Positions 4,101-30,737 of a DNA stretch of 64,000 nucleotides are shown here, piece by piece (position 1 is the stretch's first letter; the number at the start of each line of letters is the position of its first letter). The stretch comes from Allodiplogaster sudhausi. Lineage: Eukaryota; Nematoda; Chromadorea; Rhabditida; Diplogasteridae. Position numbers and translations under genes: made by a program. The notes beneath the pieces were generated by a model. It was not told the DNA's origin and did not search any database. It was given only the letters and a program-made list of their open reading frames with translations. Location of the stretch: the NCBI GenBank assembly GCA_945643635.1, contig CALZFC010000005.1:186001-250000 (forward strand). The letters are read 5' to 3'.

Positions 4101-7100
4101 CGGGGACCTCAATATTCATGAATACTGGGGCTATCTTCCAAAACTTTCTCATTTTGTAATCAAGGGACCTCGAATACTATGCTTGCTTAATTTTAAGCCA
4201 ATACGATATGTATTGGCATGGTCAACAAACTAGGTTCGGGGACCTCAATCCTCATGAATACTGGGGCTATCTTCCAAAACTTTCTCATTTTGTAATCAAG
4301 GGACCTCGAATACTATGCTTGCTTAATTGTAAGCCAATACGATATGTATTGGCATGGTCAACATACAAGGTTCGGGGACCTCAATCTTCATGAATACTGG
4401 GGCTATCTTCCAAAAGTTTCTCATTTTGTAATCAAGGGACCTCGAATACTATGCTTGCTTAATTTTAAGCCAATACGATATGTATTGGCATGGTCAACAT
4501 ACTAGGTTCGGGGACCTCAATATTCATGAATACTGGGGCTGGGACCTCAATATTCATGAATACTGGGGCTATCTTCCAAAACTTTCTCATTTTGTAATCA
4601 AGGGACCTCGAATACTATGCTTGCTTAATTGTAAGCCAATACGATATGTATTGGCATGGTCAACATACAAGGTTCGGGGACCTCAATCTTCATGAATACT
4701 GGGGCTATCTTCCAAAAGTTTCTCATTTTGTAATCAAGGGACCTCGAATACTATGCTTGCTTAATTTTAAGCCAATACGATATGTATTGGCATGGTCAAC
4801 ATACTAGGTTCGGGGACCTCAATATTCATGAATACTGGGGCTGGGACCTCAATATTCATGAATACTGGGGCTATCTTCCAAAACTTTCTCATTTTGTAAT
4901 CAAGGGACCTCGAATACTATGCTTGCTTAATTGTAAGCCAATACGATATGTATTGGCATGGTCAACATACAAGGTTTGGGGACCTCAATCTTCATGAATA
5001 CTGGGGCTATCTTCCAAAACTTTCTCATTTTGTAATCAAGGGACCTCGAATACTATGCTTGCTTAATTTTAAGCCAATACGATATGTATTGGCATGGTCA
5101 ACATACTAGGTTCGGGGACCTCAATATTCATGAATACTGGGGCTATCTTCCAAAACTTTCTCATTTTGTAATCAAGGACCTCGAATACTATGCTTGCTTG
5201 ATTTTAAGCCAATACGATATGTATTGGCATGGTCAACAAACTAGGTTCGCTGACCTCAATCCTCATGAATACTGGGGCTATCTTCCAAAACTTTCTCATT
5301 TTGTAATCAAGGGACCTCGAATACTATGCTTGCTTAATTGTAAGCCAATACGATATGTATTGGCATGGTCAACATACAAGGTTCGGGGACCTCAATCTTC
5401 ATGAATACTGGGGCTATCTTCCAAAAGTTTCTCATTTTGTAATCAAGGGACCTCGAATACTATGCTTGCTTAATTTTAAGCCATTACGATATGTATTGGC
5501 ATGGTCAACATACAAGGATTTGGGGACCTCAATCGTCATGAATATGGGGGCTATCTTCCAAAACTTTCTCATTTTGTAATCAAGGGACCTCGAATACTAT
5601 GCTTGCTTAATTGTAAGCCAATACGATATGTATTGGCATGGTCAACATACTAGGTTCGGGGACCTCAATATTCATGAATACTGGGGCTGGGACCTCAATA
5701 TTCATGAATACTGGGGCTATCTTCCAAAACTTTCTCATTTTGTAATCAAGGGACCTCGAATACTATGCTTGCTTAATTGTAAGCCAATACGATATGTATT
5801 GGCATGGTCAACATACTAGGTTCGGGGACCTCAATATTCATGAATACTGGGGCTGGGACCTCAATATTCATGAATACTGGGGCTATCTTCCAAAACTTTC
5901 TCATTTTGTAATCAAGGGACCTCGAATACTATGCTTGCTTAATTTTAAGCCAATACGATATGTATTGGCATGGTCAACATACTAAGTTCGGGGACCTCAA
6001 TCTTCATGAATACTGGGGCTATCTTCCAAAAGTTTCTCATTTTGTAATCAAGGGACCTCGAATACTATGCTTGCTTAATTTTAAGCCATTACGATATGTA
6101 TTGGCATGGTCAACATACAAGGATTTGGGGACCTCAATCGTCATGAATATGGGGGCTATCTTCCAAAACTTTCTCATTTTGTAATCAAGGGACCTCGAAT
6201 ACTATGCTTGCTTAATTGTAAGCCAATACGATATGTATTGGCATGGTCAACATACTAGGTTCGGGGACCTCAATATTCATGAATACTGGGGCTGGGACCT
6301 CAATATTCATGAATACTGGGGCTATCTTCCAAAACTTTCTCATTTTGTAATCAAGGGACCTCGAATACTATGCTTGCTTAATTGTAAGCCAATACGATAT
6401 GTATTGGCATGGTCAACATACTAGGTTCGGGGACCTCAATATTCATGAATACTGGGGCTGGGACCTCAATATTCATGAATACTGGGGCTATCTTCCAAAA
6501 CTTTCTCATTTTGTAATCAAGGGACCTCGAATACTATGCTTGCTTAATTGTAAGCCAATACGATATGTATTGGCATGGTCAACATACAAGGATTTGGGGA
6601 CCTCAATCGTCATGAATATGGGGGCTATCTTCCAAAACTTTCTCATTTTGTAATCAAGGGACCTCGAATACTATGCTTGCTTAATTGTAAGCCAATACGA
6701 TATGTATTGGCATGGTCAACATACTAGGTTCGGGGACCTCAATATTCATGAATACTGGGGCTGGGACCTCAATATTCATGAATACTGGGGCTATCTTCCA
6801 AAACTTTCTCATTTTGTAATCAAGGGACCTCGAATACTATGCTTGCTTAATTGTAAGCCAATACGATATGTATTGGCATGGTCAACATACTAGGTTCGGG
6901 GACCTCAATATTCATGAATACTGGGGCTGGGACCTCAATATTCATGAATACTGGGGCTATCTTCCAAAACTTTCTCATTTTGTAATCAAGGGACCTCGAA
7001 TACTATGCTTGCTTAATTGTAAGCCAATACGATATGTATTGGCATGGTCAACATACAAGGTTTGGGGACCTCAATCTTCATGAATACTGGGGCTATCTTC

Positions 7101-9590
7101 CAAAACTTTCTCATTTTGTAATCAAGGGACCTCGAATACTATGCTTGCTTAATTTTAAGCCAATACGATATGTATTGGCATGGTCAACATACTAAGTTCG
7201 GGGACCTCAATCTTCATGAATACTGGGGCTATCTTCCAAAAGTTTCTCATTTTGTAATCAAGGGACCTCGAATACTATGCTTGCTTAATTTTAAGCCATT
7301 ACGATATGTATTGGCATGGTCAACATACAAGGATTTGGGGACCTCAATCGTCATGAATATGGGGGGCTATCTTCCAAAACTTTCTCATTTTGTAATCAAG
7401 GGACCTCGAATACTATGCTTGCTTAATTGTAAGCCAATACGATATGTATTGGCATCCTCAACAAACTAGGTTCGGGGACCTCAATCTTCATGAATACTGG
7501 GGCTATCTTCCAAAAGTTTCTCATTTTGTAATCAAGGGACCTCGAATACTATGCTTGCTTAATTTTAAGCCAATACGATATGTATTGGCATGGTCAACAT
7601 ACTAGGTTCGGGGACCTCAATATTCATGAATACTGGGGCTATCTTCCAAAACTTTCTCATTTTGTAATCAAGGGACCACGAATACTATGCTTGCTTAATT
7701 TTAAGCCAATACGATATGTATTGGCATGGTCAACATACAAGGTTTGGGGACCTCAATCTTCATGAATACTGGGGCTATCTTCCAAAACTTTCTCATTTTG
7801 TAATCAAGGGACCTCGAATACTATGCTTGCTTAATTTTAAGCCAATACGATATGTATTGGCATGGTCAACATACTAAGTTCGGGGACCTCAATCTTCATG
7901 AATACTGGGGCTATCTTCCAAAAGTTTCTCATTTTGTAATCAAGGGACCTCGAATACTATGCTTGCTTAATTTTAAGCCATTACGATATGTATTGGCATG
8001 GTCAACATACAAGGATTTGGGGACCTCAATCGTCATGAATATGGGGGGCTATCTTCCAAAACTTTCTCATTTTGTAATCAAGGGACCTCGAATACTATGC
8101 TTGCTTAATTGTAAGCCAATACGATATGTATTGGCATGGTCAACAAACTAGGTTCGGGGACCTCAATCTTCATGAATACTGGGGCTATCTTCCAAAAGTT
8201 TCTCATTTTGTAATCAAGGGACCTCGAATACTATGCTTGCTTAATTTTAAGCCAATACGATATGTATTGGCATGGTCAACATACTAGGTTCGGGGACCTC
8301 AATATTCATGAATACTGGGGCTATCTTCCAAAACTTTCTCATTTTGTAATCAAGGGACCTCGAATACTATGCTTGCTTGATTTTAAGCCAATACGATATG
8401 TATTGGCATGGTCAACAAACTAGGTTCGCTGACCTCAATCCTCATGAATACTGGGGCTATCTTCCAAACTTTCTCATTTTGTAATCAAGGGACCTCGAAT
8501 ACTATGCTTGCTTAATTGTAAGCCAATACGATATGTATTGGCATGGTCAACATACAAGGTTCGGGGACCTCAATCTTCATGAATACTGGGGCTATCTTCC
8601 AAAAGTTTCTCATTTTGTAATCAAGGGACCTCGAATACTATGCTTGCTTAATTTTAAGCCAATACGATATGTATTGGCATGGTCAACATACTAGGTTCTT
8701 GGACCTCAATATTCATGAATACTGGGGCTGGGACCTCAATATTCATGAATACTGGGGCTATCTTCCAAAACTTTCTCATTTTGTAATCAAGGGACCTCGA
8801 ATACTATGCTTGCTTAATTGTAAGCCAATACGATATGTATTGGCATGGTCAACATACAAGGTTCGGGGACCTCAATCTTCATGAATACTGGGGCTATCTT
8901 CCAAAAGTTTCTCATTTTGTAATCAAGGGACCTCGAATACTATGCTTGCTTAATTTTAAGCCAATACGATATGTATTGGCATGGTCAACATACTAGGTTC
9001 GGGGACCTCAATATTCATGAATACTGGGGCTGGGACCTCAATATTCATGAATACTGGGGCTATCTTCCAAAACTTTCTCATTTTGTAATCAAGGGACCTC
9101 GAATACTATGCTTGCTTAATTGTAAGCCAATACGATATGTATTGGCATGGTCAACATACAAGGTTTGGGGACCTCAATCTTCATGAATACTGGGGCTATC
9201 TTCCAAAACTTTCTCATTTTGTAATCAAGGGACCTCGAATACTATGCTTGCTTAATTTTAAGCCAATACGATATGTATTGGCATGGTCAACATACTAGGT
9301 TCGGGGACCTCAATATTCATGAATACTGGGGCTATCTTCCAAAACTTTCTCATTTTGTAATCAATGGACCACGAATACTATGCTTGCTTGATTTTAAGCC
9401 AATACGATATGTATTGGCATGGTCAACAAACTAGGTTCGCTGACCTCAATCCTCATGAACACTGGGGCTATCTTCCAATACTTTCTCATTTTGTAATCAA
9501 GGGACCTCGAATACTATGCTTGCTTAATTGTAAGCCAATACGATATGTATTGGCATGGTCAACATACAAGGTTCGGGGACCTCAATCTTC
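1200..9590. repeat. Two tandem copies of a ~4.19-kb higher-order satellite repeat
   Basis: The order of 136-, 137- and 166-bp monomer variants in about 1,200-5,390 is repeated in about 5,390-9,590. Equivalent variant monomers are offset by 4,189-4,190 bp throughout: 1439/5628, 1605/5794, 1771/5960, 2044/6233, 2512/6702, 2980/7170, 3390/7580, 3662/7852, 4480/8669, 4782/8971. A few point changes separate the copies, for example TTCGGGG against TTCGCTG near 4,230 and 8,420, and GGCATGG against GGCATCC near 7,455. This marks a single block duplication of some 30 monomers. Confidence 0.85.
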
Positions 9591-9890
9591 ATGAATACTG
9601 GGGCTATCTTCCAAAAGTTTCTCATTTTGTAATCAAGGGACCTCGAATACTATGCTTGCTTAATTTTAAGCCAATACGATATGTATTGGCATGGTCAACA
9701 TACTAGGTTCTTGGACCTCAATATTCATGAATACTGGGGCTGGGACCTCCATATTCATGAATACTGGGGCTATCTTCCAAAACTTTCTCATTTTGTAATC
9801 AAGGGACCTCGAATACTATTCCAAAAGTTTCTCATTTTGTAATCAAGGGACCTCGAATACTATGCTTGCTTAATTTTAAGCCAATACGAT

Positions 9891-12800
9891 ATGTATTGGC
9901 ATGGTCAACATACTAGGTTCGGGGACCTCAATATTCATGAATACTGGGGCTGGGACCTCAATATTCATGAATACTGGGGCTATCTTCCAAAACTTTCTCA
10001 TTTTGTAATCAAGAGACCTCGAATACTATGCTTGCTTAATTGTAAGCCAATACGATATGTATTGGCATGGTCAACATACAAGGTTTGGGGACCTCAATCT
10101 TCATGAATACTGGGGCTATCTTCCAAAACTTTCTCATTTTGTAATCAAGGGACCTCGAATACTATGCTTGCTTAATTTTAAGCCAATACGATATGTATTG
10201 GCATGGTCAACATACTAGGTTCGGGGACCTCAATATTCATGAATACTGGGGCTATCTTCCAAAACTTTCTCATTTTGTAATCAAGGGACCACGAATACTA
10301 TGCTTGCTTGATTTTAAGCCAATACGATATGTATTGGCATGGTCAACAAACTAGGTTCGCTGACCTCAATCCTCATGAACACTGGGGCTATCTTCCAATA
10401 CTTTCTCATTTTGTAATCAAGGGACCTCGAATACTATGCTTGCTTAATTGTAAGCCAATACGATATGTATTGGCATGGTCAACATACAAGGTTCGGGGAC
10501 CTCAATCTTCATGAATACTGGGGCTATCTTCCAAAAGTTTCTCATTTTGTAATCAAGGGACCTCGAATACTATGCTTGCTTAATTTTAAGCCAATACGAT
10601 ATGTATTGGCATGGTCAACATACTAGGTTCTTGGACCTCAATATTCATGAATACTGGGGCTGGGACCTCCATATTCATGAATACTGGGGCTATCTTCCAA
10701 AACTTTCTCATTTTGTAATCAAGGGACCTCGAATACTATGCTTGCTTAATTGTAAGCCAATACGATATGTATTGGCATGGTCAACATACAAGGTTCGGGG
10801 ACCTCAATCTTCATGAATACTGGGGCTATCTTCCAAAAGTTTCTCATTTTGTAATCAAGGGACCTCGAATACTATGCTTGCTTAATTTTAAGCCAATACG
10901 ATATGTATTGGCATGGTCAACATACTAGGTTCGGGGACCTCAATATTCATGAATACTGGGGCTGGGACCTCAATATTCATGAATACTGGGGCTATCTTCC
11001 AAAACTTTCTCATTTTGTAATCAAGAGACCTCGAATACTATGCTTGCTTAATTGTAAGCCAATACGATATGTATTGGCATGGTCAACATACAAGGTTTGG
11101 GGACCTCAATCTTCATGAATACTGGGGCTATCTTCCAAAACTTTCTCATTTTGTAATCAAGGGACCTCGAATACTATGCTTGCTTAATTTTAAGCGAATA
11201 CGATATGTATTGGCATGGTCAACATACTAGGTTCGGGGACCTCAATATTCATGAATACTGGGGCTATCTTCCAAAACTTTCTCATTTTGTAATCAATGGA
11301 CCACGAATACTATGCTTGCTTGATTTTAAGCCAATACGATATGTATTGGCATGGTCAACAAACTAGGTTCGCTGACCTCAATCCTCATGAACACTGGGGC
11401 TATCTTCCAATACTTTCTCATTTTGTAATCAAGGGACCTCGAATACTATGCTTGCTTAATTGTAAGCCAATACGATATGTATTGGCATGGTCAACATACA
11501 AGGTTCGGGGACCTCAATCTTCATGAATACTGGGGCTATCTTCCAAAAGTTTCTCATTTTGTAATCAAGGGACCTCGAATACTATGCTTGCTTAATTTTA
11601 AGCCAATACGATATGTATTGGCATGGTCAACATACTAGGTTCTTGGACCTCAATATTCATGAATACTGGGGCTGGGACCTCCATATTCATGAATACTGGG
11701 GCTATCTTCCAAAACTTTCTCATTTTGTAATCAAGGGACCTCGAATACTATGCTTGCTTAATTGTAAGCCAATACGATATGTATTGGCATGGTCAACATA
11801 CAAGGTTCGGGGACCTCAATCTTCATGAATACTGGGGCTATCTTCCAAAAGTTTCTCATTTTGTAATCAAGGGACCTCGAATACTATGCTTGCTTAATTT
11901 TAAGCCAATACGATATGTATTGGCATGGTCAACATACTAGGTTCGGGGACCTCAATATTCATGAATACTGGGGCTGGGACCTCAATATTCATGAATACTG
12001 GGGCTATCTTCCAAAACTTTCTCATTTTGTAATCAAGAGACCTCGAATACTATGCTTGCTTAATTGTAAGCCAATACGATATGTATTGGCATGGTCAACA
12101 TACAAGGTTTGGGGAAATCAATCTTCATGAATACTGGGGCTATCTTCCAAAACTTTCTCATTTTGTAATCAAGGGACCTCGAATACTATGCTTGCTTAAT
12201 TTTAAGCGAATACGATATGTATTGGCATGGTCAACATACTAGGTTCGGGGACCTCAATATTCATGAATACTGGGGCTATCTTCCAAAACTTTCTCATTTT
12301 GTAATCAATGGACCACGAATACTATGCTTGCTTGATTTTAAGCCAATACGATATGTATTGGCATGGTCAACAAACTAGGTTCGCTGACCTCAATCCTCAT
12401 GAACACTGGGGCTATCTTCCAATACTTTCTCATTTTGTAATCAAGGGACCTCGAATACTATGCTTGCTTAATTGTAAGCCAATACGATATGTATTGGCAT
12501 GGTCAACATACAAGGTTCGGGGACCTCAATCTTCATGAATACTGGGGCTATCTTCCAAAAGTTTCTCATTTTGTAATCAAGGGACCTCGAATACTATGCT
12601 TGCTTAATTTTAAGCCAATACGATATGTATTGGCATGGTCAACATACTAGGTTCTTGGACCTCAATATTCATGAATACTGGGGCTGGGACCTCCATATTC
12701 ATGAATACTGGGGCTATCTTCCAAAACTTTCTCATTTTGTAATCAAGGGACCTCGAATACTATGCTTGCTTAATTGTAAGCCAATACGATATGTATTGGC

Positions 12801-12926
12801 ATGGTCAACATACAAGGTTCGGGGACCTCAATCTTCATGAATACTGGGGCTATCTTCCAAAAGTTTCTCATTTTGTAATCAAGGGACCTCGAATACTATG
12901 CTTGCTTAATTTTAAGCCAATACGAT
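9891..12926. repeat. Three tandem 1,012-bp higher-order satellite units
   Basis: Variant monomers recur exactly every 1,012 bp: starts at 9,891, 10,903, 11,915 and 12,927, and likewise 10,601/11,613/12,625 and 11,296/12,308. The unit carries subtypes with TTCTTGGACC and TCGCTGACC. Just upstream, 9,681-9,891 is 92 bp shorter than its counterpart in the following unit. The junction is visible near 9,820, where GAATACTAT runs straight into TCCAAAAGTT, so one copy has an internal deletion. Confidence 0.85.
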
Positions 12927-15900
12927 ATGTATTGGCATGGTCAACATACTAGGTTCGGGGACCTCAATATTCATGAATACTGGGGCTGGGACCTCAATAT
13001 TCATGAATACTGGGGCTATCTTCCAAAACTTTCTCATTTTGTAATCAAGAGACCTCGAATACTATGCTTGCTTAATTGTAAGCCAATACGATATGTATTG
13101 GCATGGTCAACATACAAGGTTTGGGGACCTCAATCTTCATGAATACTGGGGCTATCTTCCAAAACTTTCTCATTTTGTAATCAAGGGACCTCGAATACTA
13201 TGCTTGCTTAATTTTAAGCCAATAGGATATGTATTGGCATGGTCAACATACAAGGTTTGGGGACCTCAATCTTAATGAATACTGGGGCTATCTTCCAAAA
13301 CTTTCTCATTTTGTAATCAAGGGACCTCGAATACTATGCTTGCTTAATTTTAAGCCAATACGATATGTATTGGCATGGTCAACATACTAGGTTCGGGGAC
13401 CTCAATATTCATGAATACTGGGGCTGGGACCTCAATATTCATGAATACTGGGGCTATCTTCCAAAACTTTCTCATTTTGTAATCAAGAGACCTCGAATAC
13501 TATGCTTGCTTAATTGTAAGCCAATACGATATGTATTGGCATGGTCAACATACAAGGTTTGGGGACCTCAATCTTCATGAATACTGGGCTATCTTCCAAA
13601 ACTTTCTCATTTTGTAATCAAGGGACCTCGAATACTATGCTTGCTTAATTTTAAGCGAATACGATATGTATTGGCATGGTCAACATACTAGGTTCGGGGA
13701 CCTCAATATTCATGAATACTGGGGCTATCTTCCAAAACTTTCTCATTTTGTAATCAAGGGACCTCGAATACTATGCTTGCTTAATTTTAAGCCAATACGA
13801 TATGTATTGGCATGGTCAACATACTAGGTTCGGGGACCTCAATATTCATGAATACTGGGGCTGGGACCTCAATATTCATGAATACTGGGGCTATCTTCCA
13901 AAACTTTCTCATTTTGTAATCAAGAGACCTCGAATACTATGCTTGCTTAATTGTAAGCCAATACGATATGTATTGGCATGGTCAACATACAAGGTTTGGG
14001 GACCTCAATCTTCATGAATACTGGGGCTATCTTCCAAAACTTTCTCATTTTGTAATCAAGGGACCTCGAATACTATGCTTGCTTAATTTTAAGCGAATAC
14101 GATATGTATTGGCATGGTCAACATACTAGGTTCGGGGACCTCAATATTCATGAATACTGGGGCTATCTTCCAAAACTTTCTCATTTTGTAATCAATGGAC
14201 CACGAATACTATGCTTGCTTGATTTTAAGCCAATACGATATGTATTGGCATGGTCAACAAACTAGGTTCGCTGACCTCAATCCTCATGAACACTGGGGCT
14301 ATCTTCCAATACTTTCTCATTTTGTAATCAAGGGACCTCGAATACTATGCTTGCTTAATTGTAAGCCAATACGATATGTATTGGCATGGTCAACATACAA
14401 GGTTCGGGGACCTCAATCTTCATGAATACTGGGGCTATCTTCCAAAAGTTTCTCATTTTGTAATCAAGGGACCTCGAATACTATGCTTGCTTAATTTTAA
14501 GCCAATACGATATGTATTGGCATGGTCAACATACTAGGTTCTTGGACCTCAATATTCATGAATACTGGGGCTGGGACCTCCATATTCATGAATACTGGGG
14601 CTATCTTCCAAAACTTTCTCATTTTGTAATCAAGGGACCTCGAATACTATGCTTGCTTAATTGTAAGCCAATACGATATGTATTGGCATGGTCAACATAC
14701 AAGGTTCGGGGACCTCAATCTTCATGAATACTGGGGCTATCTTCCAAAAGTTTCTCATTTTGTAATCAAGGGACCTCGAATACTATGCTTGCTTAATTTT
14801 AAGCCAATACGATATGTATTGGCATGGTCAACATACTAGGTTCGGGGACCTCAATATTCATGAATACTGGGGCTGGGACCTCAATATTCATGAATACTGG
14901 GGCTATCTTCCAAAACTTTCTCATTTTGTAATCAAGAGACCTCGAATACTATGCTTGCTTAATTGTAAGCCAATACGATATGTATTGGCATGGTCAACAT
15001 ACAAGGTTTGGGGACCTCAATCTTCATGAATACTGGGGCTATCTTCCAAAACTTTCTCATTTTGTAATCAAGGGACCTCGAATACTATGCTTGCTTAATT
15101 TTAAGCCAATAGGATATGTATTGGCATGGTCAACATACAAGGTTTGGGGACCTCAATCTTAATGAATACTGGGGCTATCTTCCAAAACTTTCTCATTTTG
15201 TAATCAAGGGACCTCGAATACTATGCTTGCTTAATTTTAAGCCAATACGATATGTATTGGCATGGTCAACATACTAGGTTCGGGGACCTCAATATTCATG
15301 AATACTGGGGCTGGGACCTCAATATTCATGAATACTGGGGCTATCTTCCAAAACTTTCTCATTTTGTAATCAAGAGACCTCGAATACTATGCTTGCTTAA
15401 TTGTAAGCCAATACGATATGTATTGGCATGGTCAACATACAAGGTTTGGGGACCTCAATCTTCATGAATACTGGGGCTATCTTCCAAAACTTTCTCATTT
15501 TGTAATCAAGGGACCTCGAATACTATGCTTGCTTAATTTTAAGCGAATACGATATGTATTGGCATGGTCAACATACTAGGTTCGGGGACCTCAATATTCA
15601 TGAATACTGGGGCTATCTTCCAAAACTTTCTCATTTTGTAATCAATGGACCACGAATACTATGCTTGCTTGATTTTAAGCCAATACGATATGTATTGGCA
15701 TGGTCAACAAACTAGGTTCGCTGACCTCAATCCTCATGAACACTGGGGCTATCTTCCAATACTTTCTCATTTTGTAATCAAGGGACCTCGAATACTATGC
15801 TTGCTTAATTGTAAGCCAATACGATATGTATTGGCATGGTCAACATACAAGGTTCGGGGACCTCAATCTTCATGAATACTGGGGCTATCTTCCAAAAGTT

Positions 15901-16479
15901 TCTCATTTTGTAATCAAGGGACCTCGAATACTATGCTTGCTTAATTTTAAGCCAATACGATATGTATTGGCATGGTCAACATACTAGGTTCTTGGACCTC
16001 AATATTCATGAATACTGGGGCTGGGACCTCCATATTCATGAATACTGGGGCTATCTTCCAAAACTTTCTCATTTTGTAATCAAGGGACCTCGAATACTAT
16101 GCTTGCTTAATTGTAAGCCAATACGATATGTATTGGCATGGTCAACATACAAGGTTCGGGGACCTCAATCTTCATGAATACTGGGGCTATCTTCCAAAAG
16201 TTTCTCATTTTGTAATCAAGGGACCTCGAATACTATGCTTGCTTAATTTTAAGCCAATACGATATGTATTGGCATGGTCAACATACTAGGTTCGGGGACC
16301 TCAATATTCATGAATACTGGGGCTGGGACCTCAATATTCATGAATACTGGGGCTATCTTCCAAAACTTTCTCATTTTGTAATCAAGAGACCTCGAATACT
16401 ATGCTTGCTTAATTGTAAGCCAATACGATATGTATTGGCATGGTCAACATACAAGGTTTGGGGACCTCAATCTTCATGA
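12308..16479. repeat. Larger composite satellite units of 1,887 and 1,450 bp
   Basis: Monomer variants that recur every 1,012 bp further left recur here after 1,887 bp (12,308/14,195, 12,625/14,512, 12,927/14,814, 13,365/15,252) and then after 1,450 bp (14,195/15,645, 14,512/15,962, 14,814/16,264). The differences equal one or two extra 437/438-bp blocks (136+136+166), so the 1,012-bp unit has been lengthened by adding a three-monomer block. Confidence 0.8.
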
Positions 16480-16825
16480 ATACTGGGGCTATCTTCCAAA
16501 ACTTTCTCATTTTGTAATCAAGGGACCTCGAATACTATGCTTGCTTAATTTTAAGCCAATAGGATATGTATTGGCATGGTCAACATACAAGGTTTGGGGA
16601 CCTCAATCTTAATGAATACTGGGGCTATCTTCCAAAACTTTCTCATTTTGTAATCAAGGGACCTCGAATACTATGCTTGCTTAATTTTAAGCCAATAGGA
16701 TATGTATTGGCATGGTCAACATACAAGGTTCGGGGACCTCAATCTTCATGAATACTGGGGCTATCTTCCAAAAGTTTCTCATTTTGTAATCAAGAGACCT
16801 CGAATACTATGCTTGCTTTATTTTA

Positions 16826-16900
16826 AGCCAATACGATATGTATTGGCATGGTCAAGCCAATACGATATGTATTGGCATGGTCAAGCCAATACGATATGTA
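16826..16900. repeat. Degenerate array edge: 29-bp minirepeat containing only the satellite dyad
   Basis: At its right border the array collapses to a 29-bp unit starting AGCCAATACG, repeated at 16,826, 16,855 and 16,884. The third copy breaks off at GATATGTA. Each copy consists of the satellite's inverted-repeat core plus GCATGGTCA. Unique AT-rich sequence begins at 16,901. Confidence 0.9.
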
Positions 16901-21730: not shown

Positions 21731-21833
21731 TCTTGCGCTAATCGCCATGCGTCGCTGCTGTTTTCCTCAGCCGTTTAGTGTGCCCTTCTAATCAACAGAG
21801 GCTAGCGACTACCTCCAGAGAAGAAGTCTGATC

Positions 21834-21901
21834 ATGGCGGCAACCGCATCGGCTCCTCTTTCTGCTACAGAAGAAGTCGTTCCAAAGGAAGAAGTCAGTT
21901 T

Positions 21902-21932
<31 letters not shown>

Positions 21933-22374
21933 GAGAGGTGCAATTATTGTAATTAATAAAACAAGTTTACACGAATATTCTGTCTGAGTCACGTGATTTT
22001 CGGCTGCCAAACCACCAGGCCAGCATTTCGTCGCAAGCCATAAAGCAGAGCAAGAGAGAAAGAAGGAAGAGAAGAGGATGAGAGAAAGAGGCGGATGTGC
22101 AGAGGGTTTGTGAGAAGAGTCACAATCGATAGAAAAGCTGGATTCCGCACGTGGAAGAAGGGCGAATTGTGCGTTTCGACTTGTTGACTTCTTCAAGAAC
22201 AGCCAACACGTTTTCCTCACTGTTTCATCTTTAATTTTTTCTATGCCAGCGATTGCTGAACTCTTCGGAATGATAAAAAGGAGAGAGAAGCTAGTAGAGT
22301 GCAGGAGAAGAGGAGATAGAGAGATTGAGATAAACAGAGAAATAGAGAGAGAGAGAGAAAGAGAAGAACGAAAG

Positions 22375-22419
<45 letters not shown>

Positions 22420-25400
22420 GGGATATTGAAAGGGGGGGGGGGACGAACACCAGAGGAGAGGAAAGAGGTTTTTATGAGAGAGTGTTGAGTTGAGAGGTCA
22501 CGTACAGATTTCTACAGCAACAAACTACAACGTATGCTTGCTTTAAGCTATCCCGCTATCCCAACAACAATAATACACAAATATATTTTTTTCTTTACAT
22601 ATTAAAAGAGAAAACAAAGAGCTAAAAAAGACTAAATTACGGCATTGGAAAGAGCCAGAAAACGTTTCGATACATTTAATACTTGGCATTTTAGTTAATA
22701 GTAAAGCTTCATAAAAAAAATATATTTAAAAAAAAATTAGCATTTATTGAAGCGGCACAATAAAAAAAATTGCAAAATGGCTGATAGTAGATTATCTTCA
22801 TGGGATGAGATCACTTCGAATATATCAAGTCGTCGCTATGCATGGAGCTGTTTTCAAAAGCAGCAGATATAATGAAGAAGACAGAGAGCAGAATGGTTTC
22901 CTCTTGTAGATGCGCCGCTTCATGGCTGAGTGCGTGCGCGCTGCGGGCGGCAGCGCGTCGCACGCGTCGCAACTGGCCGACGTGCTCCTCGAAGCCGACG
23001 TCCGCGGCCACTACAGCCACGGCCTCAATCGGCTCGGTCGGCCTTCCCACTTTTTTCCTCTTTTTTTTATAAATATATTTTTTTTTATATAATTTTTTTC
23101 GCTTAAAAATCCATGATCGTTCAGAAATGTACGTCGAGAATCTCATAGAGGGCTCATGCGAGAAGGAAGGCGAGCCTGTCATCTTGAAAGGTTCTCTTTT
23201 GTCTTCAAATAATTAATATGTTGTAGAATTTTTGACTTTTGAATTACCCGCATTTTTGAAGAAAAAGAAATAAAATCAAAGTGATGAATGAAAGTGTTCT
23301 GGTCACTTATCAACATTCTAGTCTCTTATCAAAATTCTCCTTATCAGAACGCGCCGGCACCGCGTGGGTCGACGGTCGCAATCTCCTCGGGCCGGTCGTC
23401 GGCAACTTCTGCATGGATCTCGCCATCAGAAAATCAAAGGTCGCCGGAGTTGGATGGGTCACGGCAAAGGGTCAGTGAAAGAGGAATCAGAAGTTAAAGA
23501 AGTGATCAGGGTGATGATTAGGAGATACATACATACATATGTATGTATGTACCGTGAAAGATAAGAAAATCATAATAATAAACTAAATTATACGAGAAAT
23601 AAGAAAATTTCCCATTTATGATGCACGATTATGGTAAGGTGATCATCACATTTCCTCCCTTCAGGCTCAAATCACTTCGGCATCGCCGGATGGTACACGA
23701 TTCGAGCCATGAATCAAGGCTGCATGGTTGGCTCTTTGCCAGCATTGTTTTTTTTTATTATGGTGAAAGTTTATAAAATTATAAAATGAGGCATTTTCAG
23801 GGCCTCTCCTTTACGAACACATCGCCGTTGATGTTTCCGACGCGAGCTGCAGAGCCGGCACTCGGCACGAATCCCATCAGTGTGGCGGCAGCGGGTGAGA
23901 TATTGAGAAGAGGGAGAGAGAGAGGGAGAGAGGTGAGGAAGAGAGGGAGCGAGAGATGGAGGGAGGGGAGAGAGCGTCAGAGAAGAGAGACAGAGAGAGA
24001 AGGAGAGCGAGAGAAGAGAGACAGAGAGAGAGAGCGCGAGAGAAGAGAGACAGAGAGAGGGGGAACGAGAGAAGAGAGACAGAGAGAGGTGGGAACGAGA
24101 GAAGAGAGACAGAGAGAGATGGGAACGAGAGAAGAGAGACAGAGAGAGGTGGGAACGAGAAAAGAGAGACAAAGAGAGGTGGGAACGAGAGAAGAGATAC
24201 AGAGAAAGAGTCGGTCGAGATAAGAGAGACAGAGAGAGATAGAGAGCGAGAGCGAGGGAAGAGAGAGAGAGCGAAAACGAAGAATTTAGAGTGATTGATA
24301 TCTCAGGCACGAACGGTGACTCTTTCGTCCTCGACATGGCCACGACAACGGTGGCGCTTGGAAAGGTGCGAGGGCGGAAAAAAATATATTTAAGAAAAGG
24401 AAAATTCAATTAATTTATACATATTGTACAAATGAATAATTTCATAGTAAATATTTTTCATAGCAAACATAAATTAGGTGTTCTTTATAAATAATAAGAA
24501 AAAATGCACAATACAAACTATGCATATTTCGGCCAAATCAGTGAGAGATGACTTGTGGAGATCGACGAAAAGAGATTTGCGCGACCGAAATGTGATCGTG
24601 GGCAAAGAGAGCGGCGCAGAGCTCGAAGTAGAACTGCCACTTGCGGTGGAAGGCGGCAGAGTAGCCGAGAGCGCGGATCTCCGTCTCATGCGACAGCCAT
24701 TTACTGTAATTACCTCTATCTCTCTCTCTCCTCTCTTTCTTTCTCTCTCTCACTCTCCTCTCTTTCTCTCTCTTTCTCTCCTCTCTTTCTCACTCTCTCC
24801 TTCCCTTTATCTCTCCCTCTCTCTCCTCTTTCCCTCTCATCAAAGTACTCACCTATGCCAATGATCAAGAGTGTGCGCGTAGTGCCTGGCCATCTCTCTT
24901 TCCACTTTCATCTCGAGCATCTCTCTGCCTTCCTCGTCCCTCGGCAGCGCATCCTCAATCGCCCCCAGAGAAGGCAAATGCCCTCCAGGGAAAATGTGCT
25001 TGCGGATAAAGTCGGAAGAGTTGCAGTAGGAAGAGTAGTAGGCGTCCGGGCACAGGATGGCCTATAAATATGTTTAGCTCATTTAGGAAAGTGTTTTGGT
25101 TTCAAAATCTGCTGGTTTCTCAAGGCTTTCTCACTCTCACCCTCTCTCTCTCTATCTCCCTCTCTCTCACCCTCTCTCCCTCTCTCTCTCCCTCTCTCCC
25201 TCTCTCTCTCCCTCTCGCCTGAATGGCTGCCCTTCCTCCAGGGAGGAGTCTGTCGTGGATGACCCGGAAATACTCGGGCAAAAATCGCTGGCCGACCGCT
25301 TCGATCATTTCGATCGAAAGAACTGCCGAGTATTTGCCCGTCTCGAGTCTGCATAATGTATCCATCAGGGTTACGGTATTAAGATGTACTGTTAAGGGTT

Positions 25401-27263
25401 ACGGTTTGATCAGCTGAGGGTTACGGTAATAAGATTAGCTGCCGAGCTTTTGTGATTCATATGTATGTACCTGTAGTCGAGAAGCTTAATCTCGACGTTC
25501 TCCTCAACGCCGGCGGCAGTGATCTTCTCTTGTGCTAATTCGAGTTGTTCTGTCGAAATTGTCAGCGCTGTCCATTTGCAGCCGAATCTAAGCAGGAAAT
25601 GTGTCTAACTTTAATCTTGCTGACACCCATTCCATATTTTTGCTTGTGGTTCTATAGTTTTCTTTAAATTCCCTCCAACATCTGCTTTGTACGAGAGAGT
25701 ACCTTTGGACAGCGCGAATTGCAGCCGAACCCCAACCGCATCCAATCTCGAGGACGTGGTCATCCTTGGAAAGATGCAGCGAATCCAGTAGGGAGTCAAT
25801 CTACAGTAGGAAAAGAATCGTGTCAAGAGTAGAGTCCAGAAATACTTTCCGAGCAACTTGTATTAGTGTTCCTCGCGGATTGTGACAGATCTTACGGCCT
25901 CTTTTGCTAACCTTCCGCGTTTGTGCTCTCGCCAGTCGTGACATGTTCAGCGGAGTAGAAAGCGGTTCATTGGGATCTGAATTATGTATGCGCAAGTATT
26001 AGCTATTTTAAAAATAATAATTTAGCCAAAATTATAACATTAAATTTTGTTTCTAATTCTAAGATCGATTAAACGAGCTTGGTAATCTGTGATGAAAAAT
26101 GACAATTCATGAGAAACCTTCGAATAGCGCACAGGAGTAAGTCATCGTTTCGTCGAGAAATATCTCGAACATCCGATTGCCGAGATCGTAATGCTCGCTA
26201 ATGTTCTTACGGCTTCTGAAAGACAGAAATAGTTTCGACTAATTTTCTTATTACTTCTTCGTTTACTAAATCGTTGTTTTCTCTAAAAGAATGCTCTTCG
26301 TGTTCTTTTAAGAAGGAGTCAAGTAAGATAATTGAGTTGAACGACCTGAAGATCGTATTATCACGAAAGCGATGTTGGATGTAGTTGTAGAACTTTGCTG
26401 AGCGTCTAAGGCAAGTGAGCATGCCGGAGAGGGTCACCATTAGGAATCTGTAAAGATGTGCAAGAGAAAAGGGGAAGAGAGAGAGCAGGCAAAGAGAAAA
26501 TGAAAGATAAGATATATGTATATAGAGAGATGGATTTTCTGCACTTCTTGCCTACCTCGAATAGAGTGACTTCTCTACATGAGTTCCAGCATTTCGTCGT
26601 GCGACAAACTCCGCTTTCTTCTCTCCTGTAAATATTTATAAATCAGCTATTTCTTCCTATTAGTATTTGTGCTTTTCGCGATCGTTAGATCAATCTCGAC
26701 TTTAATTTTTTTAAGAGAAATATAAAAAAAAGAAATTGGCGCTGACTCTTGGCGCGAATGAGGAGCGCGAGGAATTGCTGGACGCCCGGCTCGGCGCGCC
26801 AGGCGCCCTCGACGAAGGCCTCGCCGAGACCGAGTTTCTCGTCCAGCAGAAGCCGCCAGCAAAAGTGCACCGGACGCAGAATGAACAGACGAACCGAGAC
26901 GTTCACGCTGCGAGGAGAAGAAGCTGTTTCTTTTCCATGATCGAAGAGCTAGCAGTTTTGTGTTCTAATATAGATACATATGCATCTACAAAAGTTTTGC
27001 ATTTTATATGTGCAATAGGTTTTTAATTACTACATAGCTTTAGGTAGGCTCTGAAAGAAGAATAATGGCCAATAATTAGGAATTTAATCAAAGTATAAAA
27101 AGTAGTCGAATACTTGTTATTGATGGCATTCTTTTGGCCGCCGAAAGAGAGAGTCTGCCCGACCGAAGGGATGTTGACATCGAGAAGCTCGGACGTGCCA
27201 TTGACGAGCTGCTTCAGAAATCTGGAGAAGAGATCAAAATGGGTAGAAGAAAACGAAATGTGC

Positions 27264-27311
<48 letters not shown>

Positions 27312-28573
27312 GGAGAGAGATGGAAAGAGAGAGAAAGGGAGAGAAAGAGAGAGAAGTCTAGAGAGAGAGAGAGAAGTGGGGGGCAAGGGCCAGAGAAGGA
27401 GACAGAGAGACAGAGAGATAGCGAGAGAGCGAGCGAGAGAGCGAGAGAGACTTCTCCCATTCTGACCGACTAATGAAGGGCACTGCCGTGACGGAGACGA
27501 AAGCCGTGTAGAGGCAGTCGACGAGTTGGCTGCTGGACTTTTGCTCGAAGAGCTCGTCATCCGTGTCCTCCGCAGACATCGAAGAGTTATTCGGCCAGCC
27601 AAAAAAGGGAAATAATCAGTTTTCCTAGAAAGAAACGATAGCCCATACGTACAAATTGTGCATCTAACTTGGCCAAACAATTTTTTAGTACAAATTTTGT
27701 ATTCATAGGATCAACTTCGTGTATGTTCAGGAGAGAAAGCGAGAAAGAGACACAGGAGGTGGAGAGACGACGAGAGAGCGAGATAGGAGAGAGTGAGGGG
27801 AGAGAGAAACAGGAAGGGGAGAGGCGACGAGAGAGAGAGAGAGGGAGAGAGAGAGAGAGGACTGAGAGTGAGGAGAGATGTAGTTTGTACATCTTCACCT
27901 GTGTACGTTTTCACTTATTTGTAGCCTGCGGGAGGCTTTAAAGTGAGAGAGTGTGAGAGAAGCAGAGAAAGAGAGCAAGCGGGCGGGGGGGGGGGGGGGG
28001 GGGGGGAAGGGAGGGCGGAGAAGAGGCAGTAGCCTAAATCCCGGTAGCGCCTCGAAGCACAACACGCATTCGCTGTACAGAGAGACCTTGGACAAGAAAG
28101 AGTGAAATGATGACTAAGGGGAAGGAGTTGTTGTACTACTTCAAGCAAAGTAAGAAAATTATTAAAGCTTTCTAAAACTCGACTTAAAACCACCAAAGCC
28201 CTAAAGTGTTTAACATTTCTAACGTTCGGCTATCCAGACATGGTGAAGATGTAAGAACGATAGTGAAAGTTGACACAGATTTGATTTGAGGAACCTCCGC
28301 ATAGAGCAGAGCTTGAGCGTAAGACATTCTTAATTTGACCAAAAATTCTGTTCATTTGTATCAGTTCATCATAAATCGATAAAATGCACTAGTTGGAATG
28401 AAAGAAAAAATTCTTGGAACAAGAAGAGAAAATGTCGCAGAAGGAAACATGAAAGTAGTGCACATGAGCGACAGATCCATTTAGGATAGGAGGAATGGTC
28501 CGACTAATGAGAGAGAGTGGAAGAGAAAGAGAGGGAGAGAAAGAGTGTCTGGAAGAGAGAGTGGAATGAAAAG

Positions 28574-28617
<44 letters not shown>

Positions 28618-29043
28618 TCTGTGAGAGAAAGGAAGGGAGAAAGAGAGAAATGAATGTGTACTAGTCGGCTTGAGATGTTCTGAAAAGCTGCAGAGAGCAA
28701 GCCAAGTCTGAGCATCGACTACAAAGAACCCTTGGGCGCTCCTTGCTTGATCAGCTCTCTCTCTCTCCCTCTTTCTCTTCCCTCTCTCCATCTTTCTCAA
28801 TCTCCGTTTCCTCTTTCCTTTTCTCGTTCTCTTTAATGCACCCGCTCCTTCCCCTTTCATTTGATTTGCGTGTAAGTGGACCGTCTGACAATAGTCGATT
28901 GTTCCGGAACACAGCCGGCAACTATAAATTAGCGGAATAACGTATTCAATTTGTATTTTTTGAGTAAATAAGAGTTATTGAACTGAAATAGTCATAAATT
29001 GATGGCATATAACGAAACTTCTCACGTTCTGTATCTCACTCTC

Positions 29044-29099
<56 letters not shown>

Positions 29100-29523
29100 A
29101 ACTGAAGCAGCCATTCTCTCTCTCTCTCTATCCAGGTAGAGCTGGCGGCGCGTAAAGGGGAGCGAGTGCCTGAGACGTGGGGCGCGGACGCGGCCGGCCG
29201 CGTCTCCACCGATCCCGAGTGTATCGTCCGCGAGGGTGCCCTCCTGCCACTCGGAGGATCCGAGATCAGTGGTACAGTTTTTTCTATTATAGATACATAT
29301 ATATTTTAATCTAAAATCTCTAAAATAAGTAAAATAAATATGCCTAACCATAAGTATACAGGAGGCTACAAGGGCTACGGCCTCGCAGCCATGGTTGAGC
29401 TCTTCTGCGGCGTACTCGGAGACGCGCATTGGGGTCCACATGTCAGGAAATGGGGATCCAACTCGGATGTCGCTGATCTGGTAGTCTTTGCTCACTTTCT
29501 CTCTCTTTCTCTCTCTCTATCTT

Positions 29524-29561
<38 letters not shown>

Positions 29562-30310
29562 GTTAGCACTATCTCTAATTATCACCCAATCTCATTCTCG
29601 TTCTAACCCATGGTATTTATGTCTCTCTCTTTCTCTCGCTCTCTCCCTCTTTCACTCATTCTCTTATCCCTTTCAGGGTCAATGCTTCATCGCCCTAGAC
29701 ACGGATGCCTTCGCACCCGGTTTCGCCGACCGCCTTCAGCTCTTCCTGGACACATTGAGAGGCCTGCCATCGGTTCGATCTTATCACTCCAGCTGCTATT
29801 CTATTACAACATACATATTACTATCCTTTTTTAAGTGAATAAACTGTTATAGAAATCGTCAATCTCTCATTCGGAGGTGACTGTTTGCTTGAAAATGAAT
29901 ATTCTTCAAGAATTGATCAAGCAATCGATGACGAATTCAATAGCTAATTGATAATTTTTTGCAAAAAAAAGGAGTAAAAAAAATTGTGACAAAAAAAATG
30001 TTGAGAATGACGCGGCCGCCCCGGTGGAAGTGGCTGGCGACATGGAACGTCGCCATGTCAACCTCGTAGATCGCCTCGGCGGCATTCCTTACCATCCCAA
30101 CCAAGTCGCGTTCGCGGTCAGCATTGGAGTTTATTTTACATTTTTTTTTTTAGAAATTATTTTCTTTTTTTAAATTAAATATATCCTATAGTAATTTCAT
30201 TATTATTATTGTAAAGTATTTGATTTCTATCCTTGCGTTTATCTTTGTTGCAGAAGAATCTGGCCAACAAACTCAATATTGCGCCGCCAACAGTCAAGAA
30301 AGCCGAATAA
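21834..30310 (+). CDS. Malate/L-lactate dehydrogenase, Ldh2 family (PF02615), 12 exons, 369 aa
   Basis: Exons: 21834-21893, 22910-23036, 23125-23190, 23348-23470, 23665-23726, 23801-23894, 24307-24365, 29136-29271, 29362-29480, 29677-29772, 30006-30116, 30254-30310. They total 1,110 nt in one frame ending TAA, with matching phases at every junction. The product is an NAD(P)-dependent 2-hydroxyacid dehydrogenase of the malate/L-sulfolactate type, probably cytosolic (no signal peptide). Family marks: SHGLNR with the catalytic-region His at about 56-61, DMA (exon 7), ETWGADAAG (exon 8) and GGYKGYGLA at about 243-251 in the cofactor-binding region. Length is normal for the family (about 350-380). 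The start is chosen because the 20-residue first exon ends in VVPKEE before a GTCAGT donor and exon 2 resumes in phase. Exon 11 has a weak acceptor (TTGAG). Intron 1 and introns 6-9 are rich in GA/CT repeats, and intron 7 (4,770 bp) contains another gene on the opposite strand. The family call is firm; the exact substrate is not. Confidence 0.9.
22310..22440. repeat. (GA)n tract with G-run in dehydrogenase intron 1
   Basis: AGAGAG and AAAGAGAG units, followed by a short poly-G run near 22,432-22,441. Similar shorter GA tracts lie at 21,901-21,930 in the same intron. Apart from these, the intron (21,894-22,909) shows nothing I can identify. Confidence 0.9.
23900..24290. repeat. GA-rich block with 30-bp minisatellite, dehydrogenase intron 6
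   Basis: A purine-rich tract filling intron 6. Within it, 24,061-24,210 is five exact-length 30-bp repeats starting GGGAACGAGAGAAGAG, differing by one to four bases. The minus strand is one long open, Leu/Ser-rich frame across it, an artefact of composition. Confidence 0.9.
24538..27579 (-). CDS. Cyclopropane-fatty-acyl-phospholipid synthase-like SAM methyltransferase, 12 exons, 478 aa
   Basis: Exons in transcript order: 27467-27579, 27114-27221, 26747-26907, 26556-26625, 26346-26447, 26118-26215, 25912-25976, 25703-25800, 25471-25587, 25219-25348, 24853-25061, 24538-24703. They total 1,437 nt in one frame ending TGA. Family features in order: [11 protein letters not shown] in the N-terminal lipid-binding part (about 95-105); [10 protein letters not shown] and the TMTYSC motif (about 189-212); the SAM-binding [10 protein letters not shown] (about 255-264); SIEMIEAVG (about 322-330); FPGGHLPSL (about 378-386); and [12 protein letters not shown] near the C-terminus. 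These match the CFA synthase/mycolic-acid cyclopropane synthase family (PF02353), which transfers a methylene from S-adenosylmethionine to unsaturated acyl chains of phospholipids. The start is the ATG giving [13 protein letters not shown]; an upstream exon cannot be excluded. The intron after exon 10 begins GC (CAG then GCGAGA). The whole gene sits antisense inside intron 7 of the dehydrogenase gene. Methylase or cyclopropanase specificity is unknown. Confidence 0.88.
24704..24852. repeat. (CT)n/(GA)n tracts in introns of the CFA-synthase-like gene
   Basis: The last intron (24,704-24,852) is mostly CT-rich on the plus strand. The same holds for about 25,130-25,220. The first intron (27,222-27,466) is GA-rich on the plus strand, with a pure (GA)n run at about 27,263-27,303. 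Exons are free of these tracts, which helps to delimit them. Confidence 0.85.
27580..29135. other. Remaining part of dehydrogenase intron 7, no gene recognised
   Basis: Sequence upstream of the nested gene, still inside the host intron. It contains GA-rich tracts (27,720-27,870; 28,500-28,660), a 22-base G run at 27,985-28,006, a CT block at 28,755-28,830 and (CT)n at 29,040-29,092 directly in front of host exon 8. A minus-strand segment starting [12 protein letters not shown] near 28,333 looks faintly exon-like but has no supporting homology. Confidence 0.6.
27985..28006 (+). repeat. 22-base poly-G run
   Basis: An uninterrupted G homopolymer within a G-rich context (GGGCGGGGG before it, AAGGGAGGGCGG after). 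It could form G-quadruplexes on the plus strand, and its length may be unreliable in an assembly. Confidence 0.85.
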
Positions 30311-30737
30311 GACAGAATCAGCAGAACTTGTATAGATCACCACAAGATATCTGATTGTTTAATAGTTTCGCTTGCCATCTAGTTTACTGAGGGTATAAAA
30401 GTATTATTACCCTCTTGAAAATTAATCAATTCTTGAATAAAATATCACCATGATTAGCCTGTTGAGAGGTGCCGGCATGGCGAATATCTTGTAGAATGAC
30501 ACACGGTTTGCAATTGCATATTTAAAGTATTTTCCTTTTTGTTAAAGTTTATTAATCATTACCAAATTAATATATTGGAGTAACGGTTACACTCAAGTGA
30601 CATGACGAAATTGTTGCGAACTCGAGACCATTCGACGCATGTTGTTTTCACTTGGAATAAGTGAACATTGAAAGAGCTTCCGTCGGAGCGAATGCGAGAA
30701 AAACATAAGGAACCTGTTGAAAGTGTTGATTGGTAGA
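30311..30737. other. Intergenic tail-to-tail spacer
   Basis: 3' flanks of the dehydrogenase (+) and of chemoreceptor copy 1 (-). It contains both AATAAA signals. The segment 30,590-30,700 (GAATAAGTGAACATTGAA with CTTCCGTCGGAGCG) resembles the downstream flanks of the other family I receptors near 43,960-44,060 and 53,160-53,270, so it is part of the duplicated unit. Confidence 0.55.
30436..30441 (+). promoter_or_regulatory. Poly(A) signal AATAAA of the dehydrogenase gene
   Basis: A canonical AATAAA 126 bp after the TAA stop. A minus-strand AATAAA (30,548-30,553) belonging to the convergent chemoreceptor gene lies about 107 bp further on, so the two transcripts end tail to tail. Confidence 0.6.

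What the first reader, a model, noticed from the sequence alone, without database searches (positions are those of the whole stretch)
24366..29135. Complete 12-exon gene nested antisense in one intron of another 12-exon gene
Dehydrogenase exons 7 and 8 join in phase across 4.77 kb (LGK then VELAARKGE, as the family requires). The intervening DNA encodes a full 478-residue CFA-synthase-like protein on the other strand. Both frames close perfectly. Convergent transcription through each other could cause interference or antisense regulation.
Basis: partly seen in the sequence, partly recalled or inferred. Interest (0 to 1): 0.75.

Follow-up and report, generated by a model that had tools for sequence, protein, structure and literature searches.

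The report
Gene nested antisense inside dehydrogenase intron
In a roundworm, a complete gene of a fatty-acid-methylating enzyme family sits backwards inside one intron of a dehydrogenase gene; such nesting is common in worms, but this particular pair also overlaps in C. elegans and has probably stayed together for a very long time.

Summary
A plus-strand 12-exon Ldh_2 malate/lactate dehydrogenase gene (369 aa) carries, in its 4,770-nt intron 7 (24366-29135), a complete minus-strand 12-exon CMAS-family gene (478 aa). An intact second copy of the unit lies on another contig of the same genome, with 24 of 24 exon lengths and all splice dinucleotides unchanged. Both genes show purifying selection (dN/dS about 0.17 and 0.09-0.10), so a misplaced or chance gene is unlikely. 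The nested gene falls in the clade of C. elegans fcmt-1, a fatty acid C-methyltransferase probably acquired from bacteria. A published methods note says that an fcmt-1 deletion removes intronic sequence of VF13D12L.3, a C. elegans member of the host family. Deposited C. briggsae and C. nigoni host proteins lose homology exactly at this intron, and 6 of 9 comparable nematode species list both genes on contigs of equal length. A distant paralog has the same intron, 303 nt and empty. Opposite-strand nesting is common in nematodes (567 pairs in C. elegans), so this is a new instance of a known kind, notable for its probable age and its inner gene's origin. Regulation between the genes is untested.

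The parts
21834..30310 (+). Host gene: Ldh_2 malate/lactate dehydrogenase, CDS span, 12 exons, 369 aa
21834..21893 (+). host exon 1
   Evidence: length and donor conserved in C45 copy
22910..23036 (+). host exon 2
23125..23190 (+). host exon 3
23348..23470 (+). host exon 4
23665..23726 (+). host exon 5
23801..23894 (+). host exon 6
24307..24365 (+). host exon 7 (ends ...ALGK)
24366..29135 (+). host intron 7, GT-AG, phase 0, 4,770 nt; holds the whole nested gene
   Evidence: same position in distant paralog C240 (303 nt, no nested gene)
29136..29271 (+). host exon 8 (begins VELA...)
29362..29480 (+). host exon 9
29677..29772 (+). host exon 10
30006..30116 (+). host exon 11
30254..30310 (+). host exon 12 with stop
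30436..30441 (+). AATAAA, candidate host poly(A) signal, present in both intact copies
   Evidence: sequence, (inference)
21771..21833 (+). candidate host 5' UTR after a splice-acceptor-like site (TTTTCCTCAG), present in both intact copies; cis- or trans-splice acceptor
   Evidence: inference
24538..27579 (-). Nested gene: CMAS-family (fcmt-1 clade) methyltransferase, CDS span, 12 exons, 478 aa
27467..27579 (-). nested exon 1
27114..27221 (-). nested exon 2
26747..26907 (-). nested exon 3
26556..26625 (-). nested exon 4
26346..26447 (-). nested exon 5
26118..26215 (-). nested exon 6
25912..25976 (-). nested exon 7
25703..25800 (-). nested exon 8
25471..25587 (-). nested exon 9
25219..25348 (-). 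nested exon 10 (GC donor, also GC in the C45 copy)
24853..25061 (-). nested exon 11
24538..24703 (-). nested exon 12 with stop
27580..27624 (-). candidate nested 5' UTR after an acceptor-like site (TTTCTTTCTAG) identical in both intact copies
   Evidence: inference
27625..29135 (-). intronic stretch upstream of the nested gene; must hold its promoter if it has its own
   Evidence: inference; identity between copies 0.73-0.96 per 100 nt over 27580-29135
24366..24537 (-). 172-nt stretch between the nested stop and host exon 7; must hold the nested poly(A) site if fully nested; TATAAA present in both intact copies
   Evidence: inference

Best explanation
Two ordinary, independently transcribed protein-coding genes share one locus as an opposite-strand nested pair. 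The host makes an Ldh_2 dehydrogenase (family of C. elegans VF13D12L.3 and F36A2.3); its 4.77-kb intron 7 is spliced out, and the antisense copy of the nested gene leaves with it. The nested gene makes an FCMT-1-type SAM-dependent fatty acid C-methyltransferase from its own minus-strand promoter inside the intron. The mature mRNAs share no exon sequence. The arrangement was inherited: in C. elegans the same families overlap on opposite strands, fcmt-1 lying at least in part in intron sequence of VF13D12L.3. The intron is probably older than the nest, because a distant paralog has it without the nested gene. SHOWN: both gene structures, the nesting, an intact duplicate of the unit, purifying selection on both genes, and family membership of both. 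SHOWN in print: fcmt-1 deletion tm2382 (exons 2-4) removes intronic sequence of VF13D12L.3, with genes on both strands. INFERRED: transcription, own promoter and poly(A) site, methyltransferase activity in this species, and common ancestry of the nest with C. elegans. Any interference or co-regulation is inferred to be a weak by-product.
For: Gene models and Pfam; alignment with 12 relatives each. Intact duplicate unit on C45:627718-636767 with 24 of 24 exon lengths, 369 and 478 aa. dN/dS host 0.029/0.176, nested 0.016/0.185 by NG86; the similar dS values fit joint duplication. Trees: host with Pristionchus 100/99, inside a 21-row group of clade V and III nematodes at 88/92, which is short of strong support (36 rows); nested gene inside the nematode FCMT-1 group 100/99, diplogastrid group 100/100 (37 rows). 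C. elegans: PMC10876521, passages. C. briggsae and C. nigoni host models lose homology at ...TVAIGK|V, the exact intron-7 position. Linkage: P. entomophagus tags 8894/8895, H. contortus 013242, 013243 beside 013244 and near 013249, equal contig length in 6 of 9 species with contig data for both families. Intron at the same site and phase, 303 nt, without nested gene, in paralog C240.
Against: No transcript data. Outside this genome the whole nest was not seen: for C. elegans the paper gives a partial overlap, for other species only linkage or shortened host models. Diploscapter pachys has the two genes on different contigs (61,741 and 137,445 bp); N. brasiliensis and Ditylenchus destructor also show different contig lengths, so 3 of 9 do not support linkage. 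A third copy in this genome (C45:2128.6-2137.5 kb) is broken in both genes, so the unit is not always kept.
Confidence: 0.92

Rival explanations
1. The two genes regulate each other: head-on transcription through the shared 4.77 kb interferes with, or induces, the partner (for example a short host transcript starting or ending in the intron), and this is why the nest is kept.
For: C. elegans polq-1/ceh-10 precedent, and host expression on average in about half of the cell types that express a nested gene. C. briggsae and C. nigoni deposited host models end 23 and 27 residues inside the same intron with similar tails, which could be a real short isoform. The fcmt-1(tm2382) deletion, which also removes host intron sequence, has metabolite changes that the fcmt-1 nonsense allele lacks.
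Against: In P. pacificus, expression of embedded antisense genes and hosts is uncorrelated. The short models may be annotation errors at a long intron. In this species the read-through tail after exon 7 differs from that of the two Caenorhabditis. Nested pairs in C. [quoted passage not shown]
Confidence: 0.2
2. Assembly artefact or chance: the nested gene is misplaced by mis-joining, or one of the gene models is wrong.
For: The locus is rich in simple repeats and lies near a satellite array, where assemblies err.
Against: Intact duplicate of the whole unit on another contig, the C. elegans overlap, consecutive locus tags in P. entomophagus, and Pfam E-values of 1.1e-107 and 9.3e-73.
Confidence: 0.02
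3. The nest arose separately in the diplogastrid and Caenorhabditis lineages (re-insertion into the same old intron).
For: Most antisense pairs in the nematode survey are lineage-specific. Nesting was not seen here in intermediate taxa. D. pachys shows the genes on different contigs.
Against: Same two families, the same host intron position as implied by the shortened C. briggsae and C. nigoni models, and equal contig lengths in taxa on both sides.
Confidence: 0.07

Closest known systems
C. elegans VF13D12L.3 (annotated malate/lactate oxidoreductase) and fcmt-1/F13D12.9 on the opposite strand
   Same: Same two gene families; the fcmt-1 deletion tm2382 (exons 2-4) removes intronic sequence of VF13D12L.3, with genes on both strands (PMC10876521, passages)
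   Different: C. elegans exon structure and the exact intron were not read here; this genome has two intact units, one broken unit and four loose fcmt-1-like copies
Opposite-strand nested gene pairs of C. elegans (567 pairs; e.g. ceh-10 in polq-1)
   Same: Whole gene inside an intron of an opposite-strand host (PMC12274878, passages and section 13)
   Different: There a transcription factor gene in a DNA repair gene; here two metabolic enzymes, the inner one of probable bacterial origin
Antisense transcripts embedded in introns of P. [quoted passage not shown]
   Same: Same class, in the nearest well-studied relative; mostly protein-coding, long host introns (PMC4994411, passages and sections 8 and 9)
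   Different: This pair is not named in the main text of that paper (its supplements were not readable)

Membership tests
Opposite-strand nested protein-coding gene pair | Entire nested CDS inside a single host intron | tested here: met
   24538-27579 within 24366-29135
Opposite-strand nested protein-coding gene pair | Opposite strands, both protein-coding and under constraint | tested here: met
Opposite-strand nested protein-coding gene pair | Both transcribed and spliced as separate mRNAs | not testable with these tools
   no RNA data held
FCMT-1 clade of nematode CMAS methyltransferases | CMAS domain above the curated cut-off | tested here: met
   245.3 bits against a cut-off of 27
FCMT-1 clade of nematode CMAS methyltransferases | Falls inside the nematode FCMT-1 clade and not among bacterial homologs | tested here: met
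   37-row tree with 7 non-nematode rows, nematode branch 100/99 on midpoint rooting
FCMT-1 clade of nematode CMAS methyltransferases | Makes beta-methyl fatty acids from cis-monounsaturated fatty acids | not testable with these tools
   activity reported for C. elegans
Ldh_2 dehydrogenase, host clade | Ldh_2 domain over full length | tested here: met
   360.4 bits, profile positions 2-328 of 333
Ldh_2 dehydrogenase, host clade | Orthologous to VF13D12L.3 rather than to its paralog F36A2.3 | tested here: inconclusive
   Groups with Pristionchus (100/99) and near C. remanei CRE_02254, but neither C. elegans protein was a row
Processed retrogene inserted in an intron | Nested gene lacks introns | tested here: not met
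   11 introns in the nested gene

The most novel reading that the evidence does not exclude
The nest is the frozen landing site of an ancient bacterial gene. A cyclopropane-synthase-like gene entered an early chromadorean nematode, landed antisense in an old intron of a resident Ldh_2 gene, gained introns and has been passed on there ever since across clades V and III. Re-siting it breaks the host, as in this genome's third copy, where an inversion with one end in the host intron split the host and the nested gene also decayed. Fresh copies leave only by duplication, like the four un-nested copies here.
Probability: 0.35. Interest if true: 0.65.

Novelty: new member of a known kind. Interest (0 to 1): 0.42.

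Why it matters
Most antisense nested pairs in nematodes are reported as lineage-specific (PMC4994411). A pair kept since before the Diplogastridae-Caenorhabditis split, and perhaps since before clades III and V parted, would be one of few with which to test why nests persist: regulation, or simply because any rearrangement would break the host. The inner gene's C. elegans relative makes a lipid signal that acts through NHR-49 and probably came from bacteria, so the locus may also mark where and when that transfer happened. In practice, mutations in either gene of such a pair must be read with the other in mind, and deposited host models that end at this intron deserve a check. Two intact units plus a broken one in one genome give a natural comparison.

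Tried and rejected
Processed retrogene: rejected, the nested gene has 11 introns. Chance or pseudogene: rejected for the two intact units. Misplaced contig: disfavoured. A dehydrogenase that ends after exon 7: disfavoured, exons 8-12 are constrained (dN 0.032, dS 0.154), but a short isoform is not excluded. C5 and C45 as two alleles, as a block duplication or as a whole-genome duplication: not decided. Homology lies in blocks from window 16.9 to 56.6 kb, the longer main blocks at about 78-92% nucleotide identity. Allodiplogaster sudhausi, known for a recent genome duplication (PMC12325724, passages; the thought itself was recalled), was considered as the species and not tested, so no species is claimed. 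Rfam at gathering thresholds and tRNA scans of the window found nothing. A Pfam scan of a neighbouring membrane-protein-like reading found nothing. The paper search pairing the enzyme name with Pristionchus found 0 papers. No structure prediction was made, because sequence matches to named families were enough.

Linkage count: among nematode species with a contig length listed for both families, 6 of 9 have equal lengths (P. entomophagus, P. pacificus, M. belari, H. contortus, T. canis, A. viteae) and 3 of 9 differ (D. pachys, N. brasiliensis, D. destructor; the last two may come from different assemblies). The tables list only the best 120 proteins each. Family searches of the own genome score only the best candidates, so copy numbers are lower bounds.

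Full report
What is there. I rebuilt both genes from the sequence. The host runs 21834-30310 on the plus strand in 12 exons; all 11 introns are GT-AG, and the joined exons read 369 codons plus a stop. Inside it, on the minus strand, 12 exons from 27579 to 24538 read 478 codons plus a stop; 10 of 11 introns are GT-AG and intron 10 is GC-AG. The host matches Pfam Ldh_2 (E 1.1e-107) and the nested protein CMAS (E 9.3e-73). The best-scoring solved structures by sequence are 1v9n, malate dehydrogenase, and 5z9o, cyclopropane-fatty-acyl-phospholipid synthase. Against 12 relatives each, the models align well apart from variable N-termini, small loops, and relatives whose deposited proteins start late (P0148, P0021).

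Whose genome. The best protein matches are Pristionchus: 74-75% identity for the host, 58-59% for the nested protein. The window is therefore from a diplogastrid-like nematode. It lies at C5:186001-250000 of a 351.8-Mb assembly in 382 contigs. The species was not identified.

Independent check inside the same genome. Family searches of the own genome found further copies. C45:627718-636767 holds a second complete unit: 24 of 24 exons have the same length, all splice dinucleotides including the GC donor are unchanged, and both proteins are open at 369 and 478 aa. Between the two units, host dN is 0.029 and dS 0.176; nested dN is 0.016 and dS 0.185 (NG86); YN00 gives 0.029/0.177 and 0.017/0.166. 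Host exons 1-7 and 8-12 are each constrained (0.027/0.196 and 0.032/0.154). The 12 nested exons are 93-98% identical without gaps; the 11 nested introns are 65-92% identical and 8 of them show gaps. Homology continues in blocks through the flanks, from window 16.9 to 56.6 kb. A mis-join or a chance model would not be expected to give this.

A third, broken unit. At C45:2128.6-2137.5 kb host exons 2-7 and host exons 8-12 lie on opposite strands; the block with exons 8-12 is inverted relative to the other copies, with one end in the host intron. Host exon 1 was not found there. Host exon 8 reads a stop, and the nested copy lacks parts of its coding sequence. Both genes of this unit are therefore broken. 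Which damage came first is not known, and a mis-assembly of this copy is not excluded.

Loose copies. Four more nested-family copies, without host matches in the 10 kb fetched around each, lie on C45 (about 560 and 584 kb) and C59 (about 109 and 120 kb). As partial rows they form one clade (100/100) that is sister to the nested copies, and the two together form a clade (100/97) apart from Pristionchus. So the un-nested line seems to have separated from the nested line after the split from Pristionchus. That the nested state came first is inferred from C. elegans.

The pair in other nematodes. Fox et al. 2024 (PMC10876521; abstract, passages and sections 9 and 17 seen) name the C. elegans family member fcmt-1 (F13D12.9), show that it is required for beta-methyl fatty acids, report it conserved across Nematoda and propose ancient transfer from bacteria. 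[quoted passage not shown] That is the same pair of families in the same topology, shown for at least part of fcmt-1. Deposited host proteins of C. nigoni (P0241) and C. briggsae (P0242) follow the C. remanei protein up to ...TVAIGK|V and end 27 and 23 residues later without further homology: the exact site of intron 7. In P. entomophagus the two genes bear consecutive tags (8894, 8895), and in H. contortus 013242 and 013243 (host family) stand beside 013244 (nested family), with another at 013249. Of 9 species with a contig length for both families, 6 have equal lengths and 3 do not. These data show linkage, not nesting, outside C. elegans and this genome.

Older intron. A distant Ldh_2 paralog on C240, which groups with Diploscapter b, Plectus and Ditylenchus proteins and not with the host (a partial row, and Ditylenchus is a long branch), has an intron at the same codon boundary and phase, 303 nt long by its sequence, without a significant match to the nested gene. 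The simplest reading is that the intron came first and the methyltransferase gene entered it later; loss of a nested gene from the paralog is possible but needs an extra step.

How it most likely works. The host pre-mRNA is spliced across 4.77 kb and the antisense gene leaves with the intron. The nested gene has its own start: an acceptor-like site (TTTCTTTCTAG) 45 nt before its ATG is identical in both intact units although nearby sequence differs, and only 172 nt separate its stop from host exon 7, so its poly(A) site must lie there if the nest is complete (inference). The nested enzyme is expected to act as in C. [quoted passage not shown] The role of this Ldh_2 branch is unclear. In C. elegans neither VF13D12L.3 nor its paralog F36A2.3 appeared to be required for rhodoquinone-dependent metabolism, with redundancy as a caveat; F36A2.3 was essential, and a presumptive CRISPR null of VF13D12L.3 was made (PMC8659336, passages). 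VF13D12L.3 is listed among genes up-regulated in three mutants with high HIF-1 activity (PMC10959373, one passage).

Against what is known. Opposite-strand nesting is common in nematodes: 567 pairs in C. elegans (PMC12274878; abstract, passages and section 13) and 465 fully embedded antisense transcripts in 278 P. pacificus host genes, mostly protein-coding and with uncorrelated expression (PMC4994411; passages and sections 8 and 9). In that second study most pairs were lineage-specific and 13 were initially found clearly conserved between C. elegans and P. pacificus. Term searches of both main texts found no mention of the present pair, and the full-text searches for the gene names did not return either paper; supplements could not be read. 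Those searches returned 1 paper for F13D12.9, 3 for VF13D12L.3 and 1 for fcmt-1 together with methyltransferase and nematode, and none of the passages that I saw discusses conservation of the nest. The library covers open-licence papers only.

Verdict. The finding is real and accurately described. It is a new instance of a common kind whose pair of genes already overlaps in C. elegans. Its interest lies in its probable age, in the probable bacterial origin of the inner gene and in the natural series of intact, broken and un-nested copies in one genome.

Noticed in passing
1-16855: Satellite DNA: tandem units of 136 and 166 bp in higher-order arrangements of about 302 and 438 bp.
   Followed up: no
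30600-63000: Blocks near 30.6-33.6, 43.5-47.5 and 53-56.6 kb, and near 47.8-52.3 and 57.7-63 kb, match overlapping places in C45 and so resemble one another, as if genes were tandemly repeated; a joined hydrophobic reading from 30.8-31.9 kb gave no Pfam match.
   Followed up: partly
C45:2128598-2137464 (L012, L026, L035): Third copy of the nested unit with an inverted host 3' part; both genes broken.
   Followed up: yes
L010, L011 (C45) and L013, L014 (C59): Four un-nested CMAS copies that pair between C45 and C59 in the tree (L010 with L014, L011 with L013), which fits a wider duplication of this region.
   Followed up: partly
C92:609-1103: Ldh_2 match in a 253-aa open frame near the start of a contig; could be contamination or a retrocopy.
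   Followed up: no
P0241, P0242: Deposited Caenorhabditis nigoni and C. briggsae host proteins end just inside the nest intron with similar short tails; annotation error or a real short isoform.
   Followed up: partly
P0124: A deposited Diploptera punctata protein carries the later part of one Ldh_2 domain followed by a second Ldh_2 domain, perhaps a fused gene model of tandem copies.
   Followed up: no
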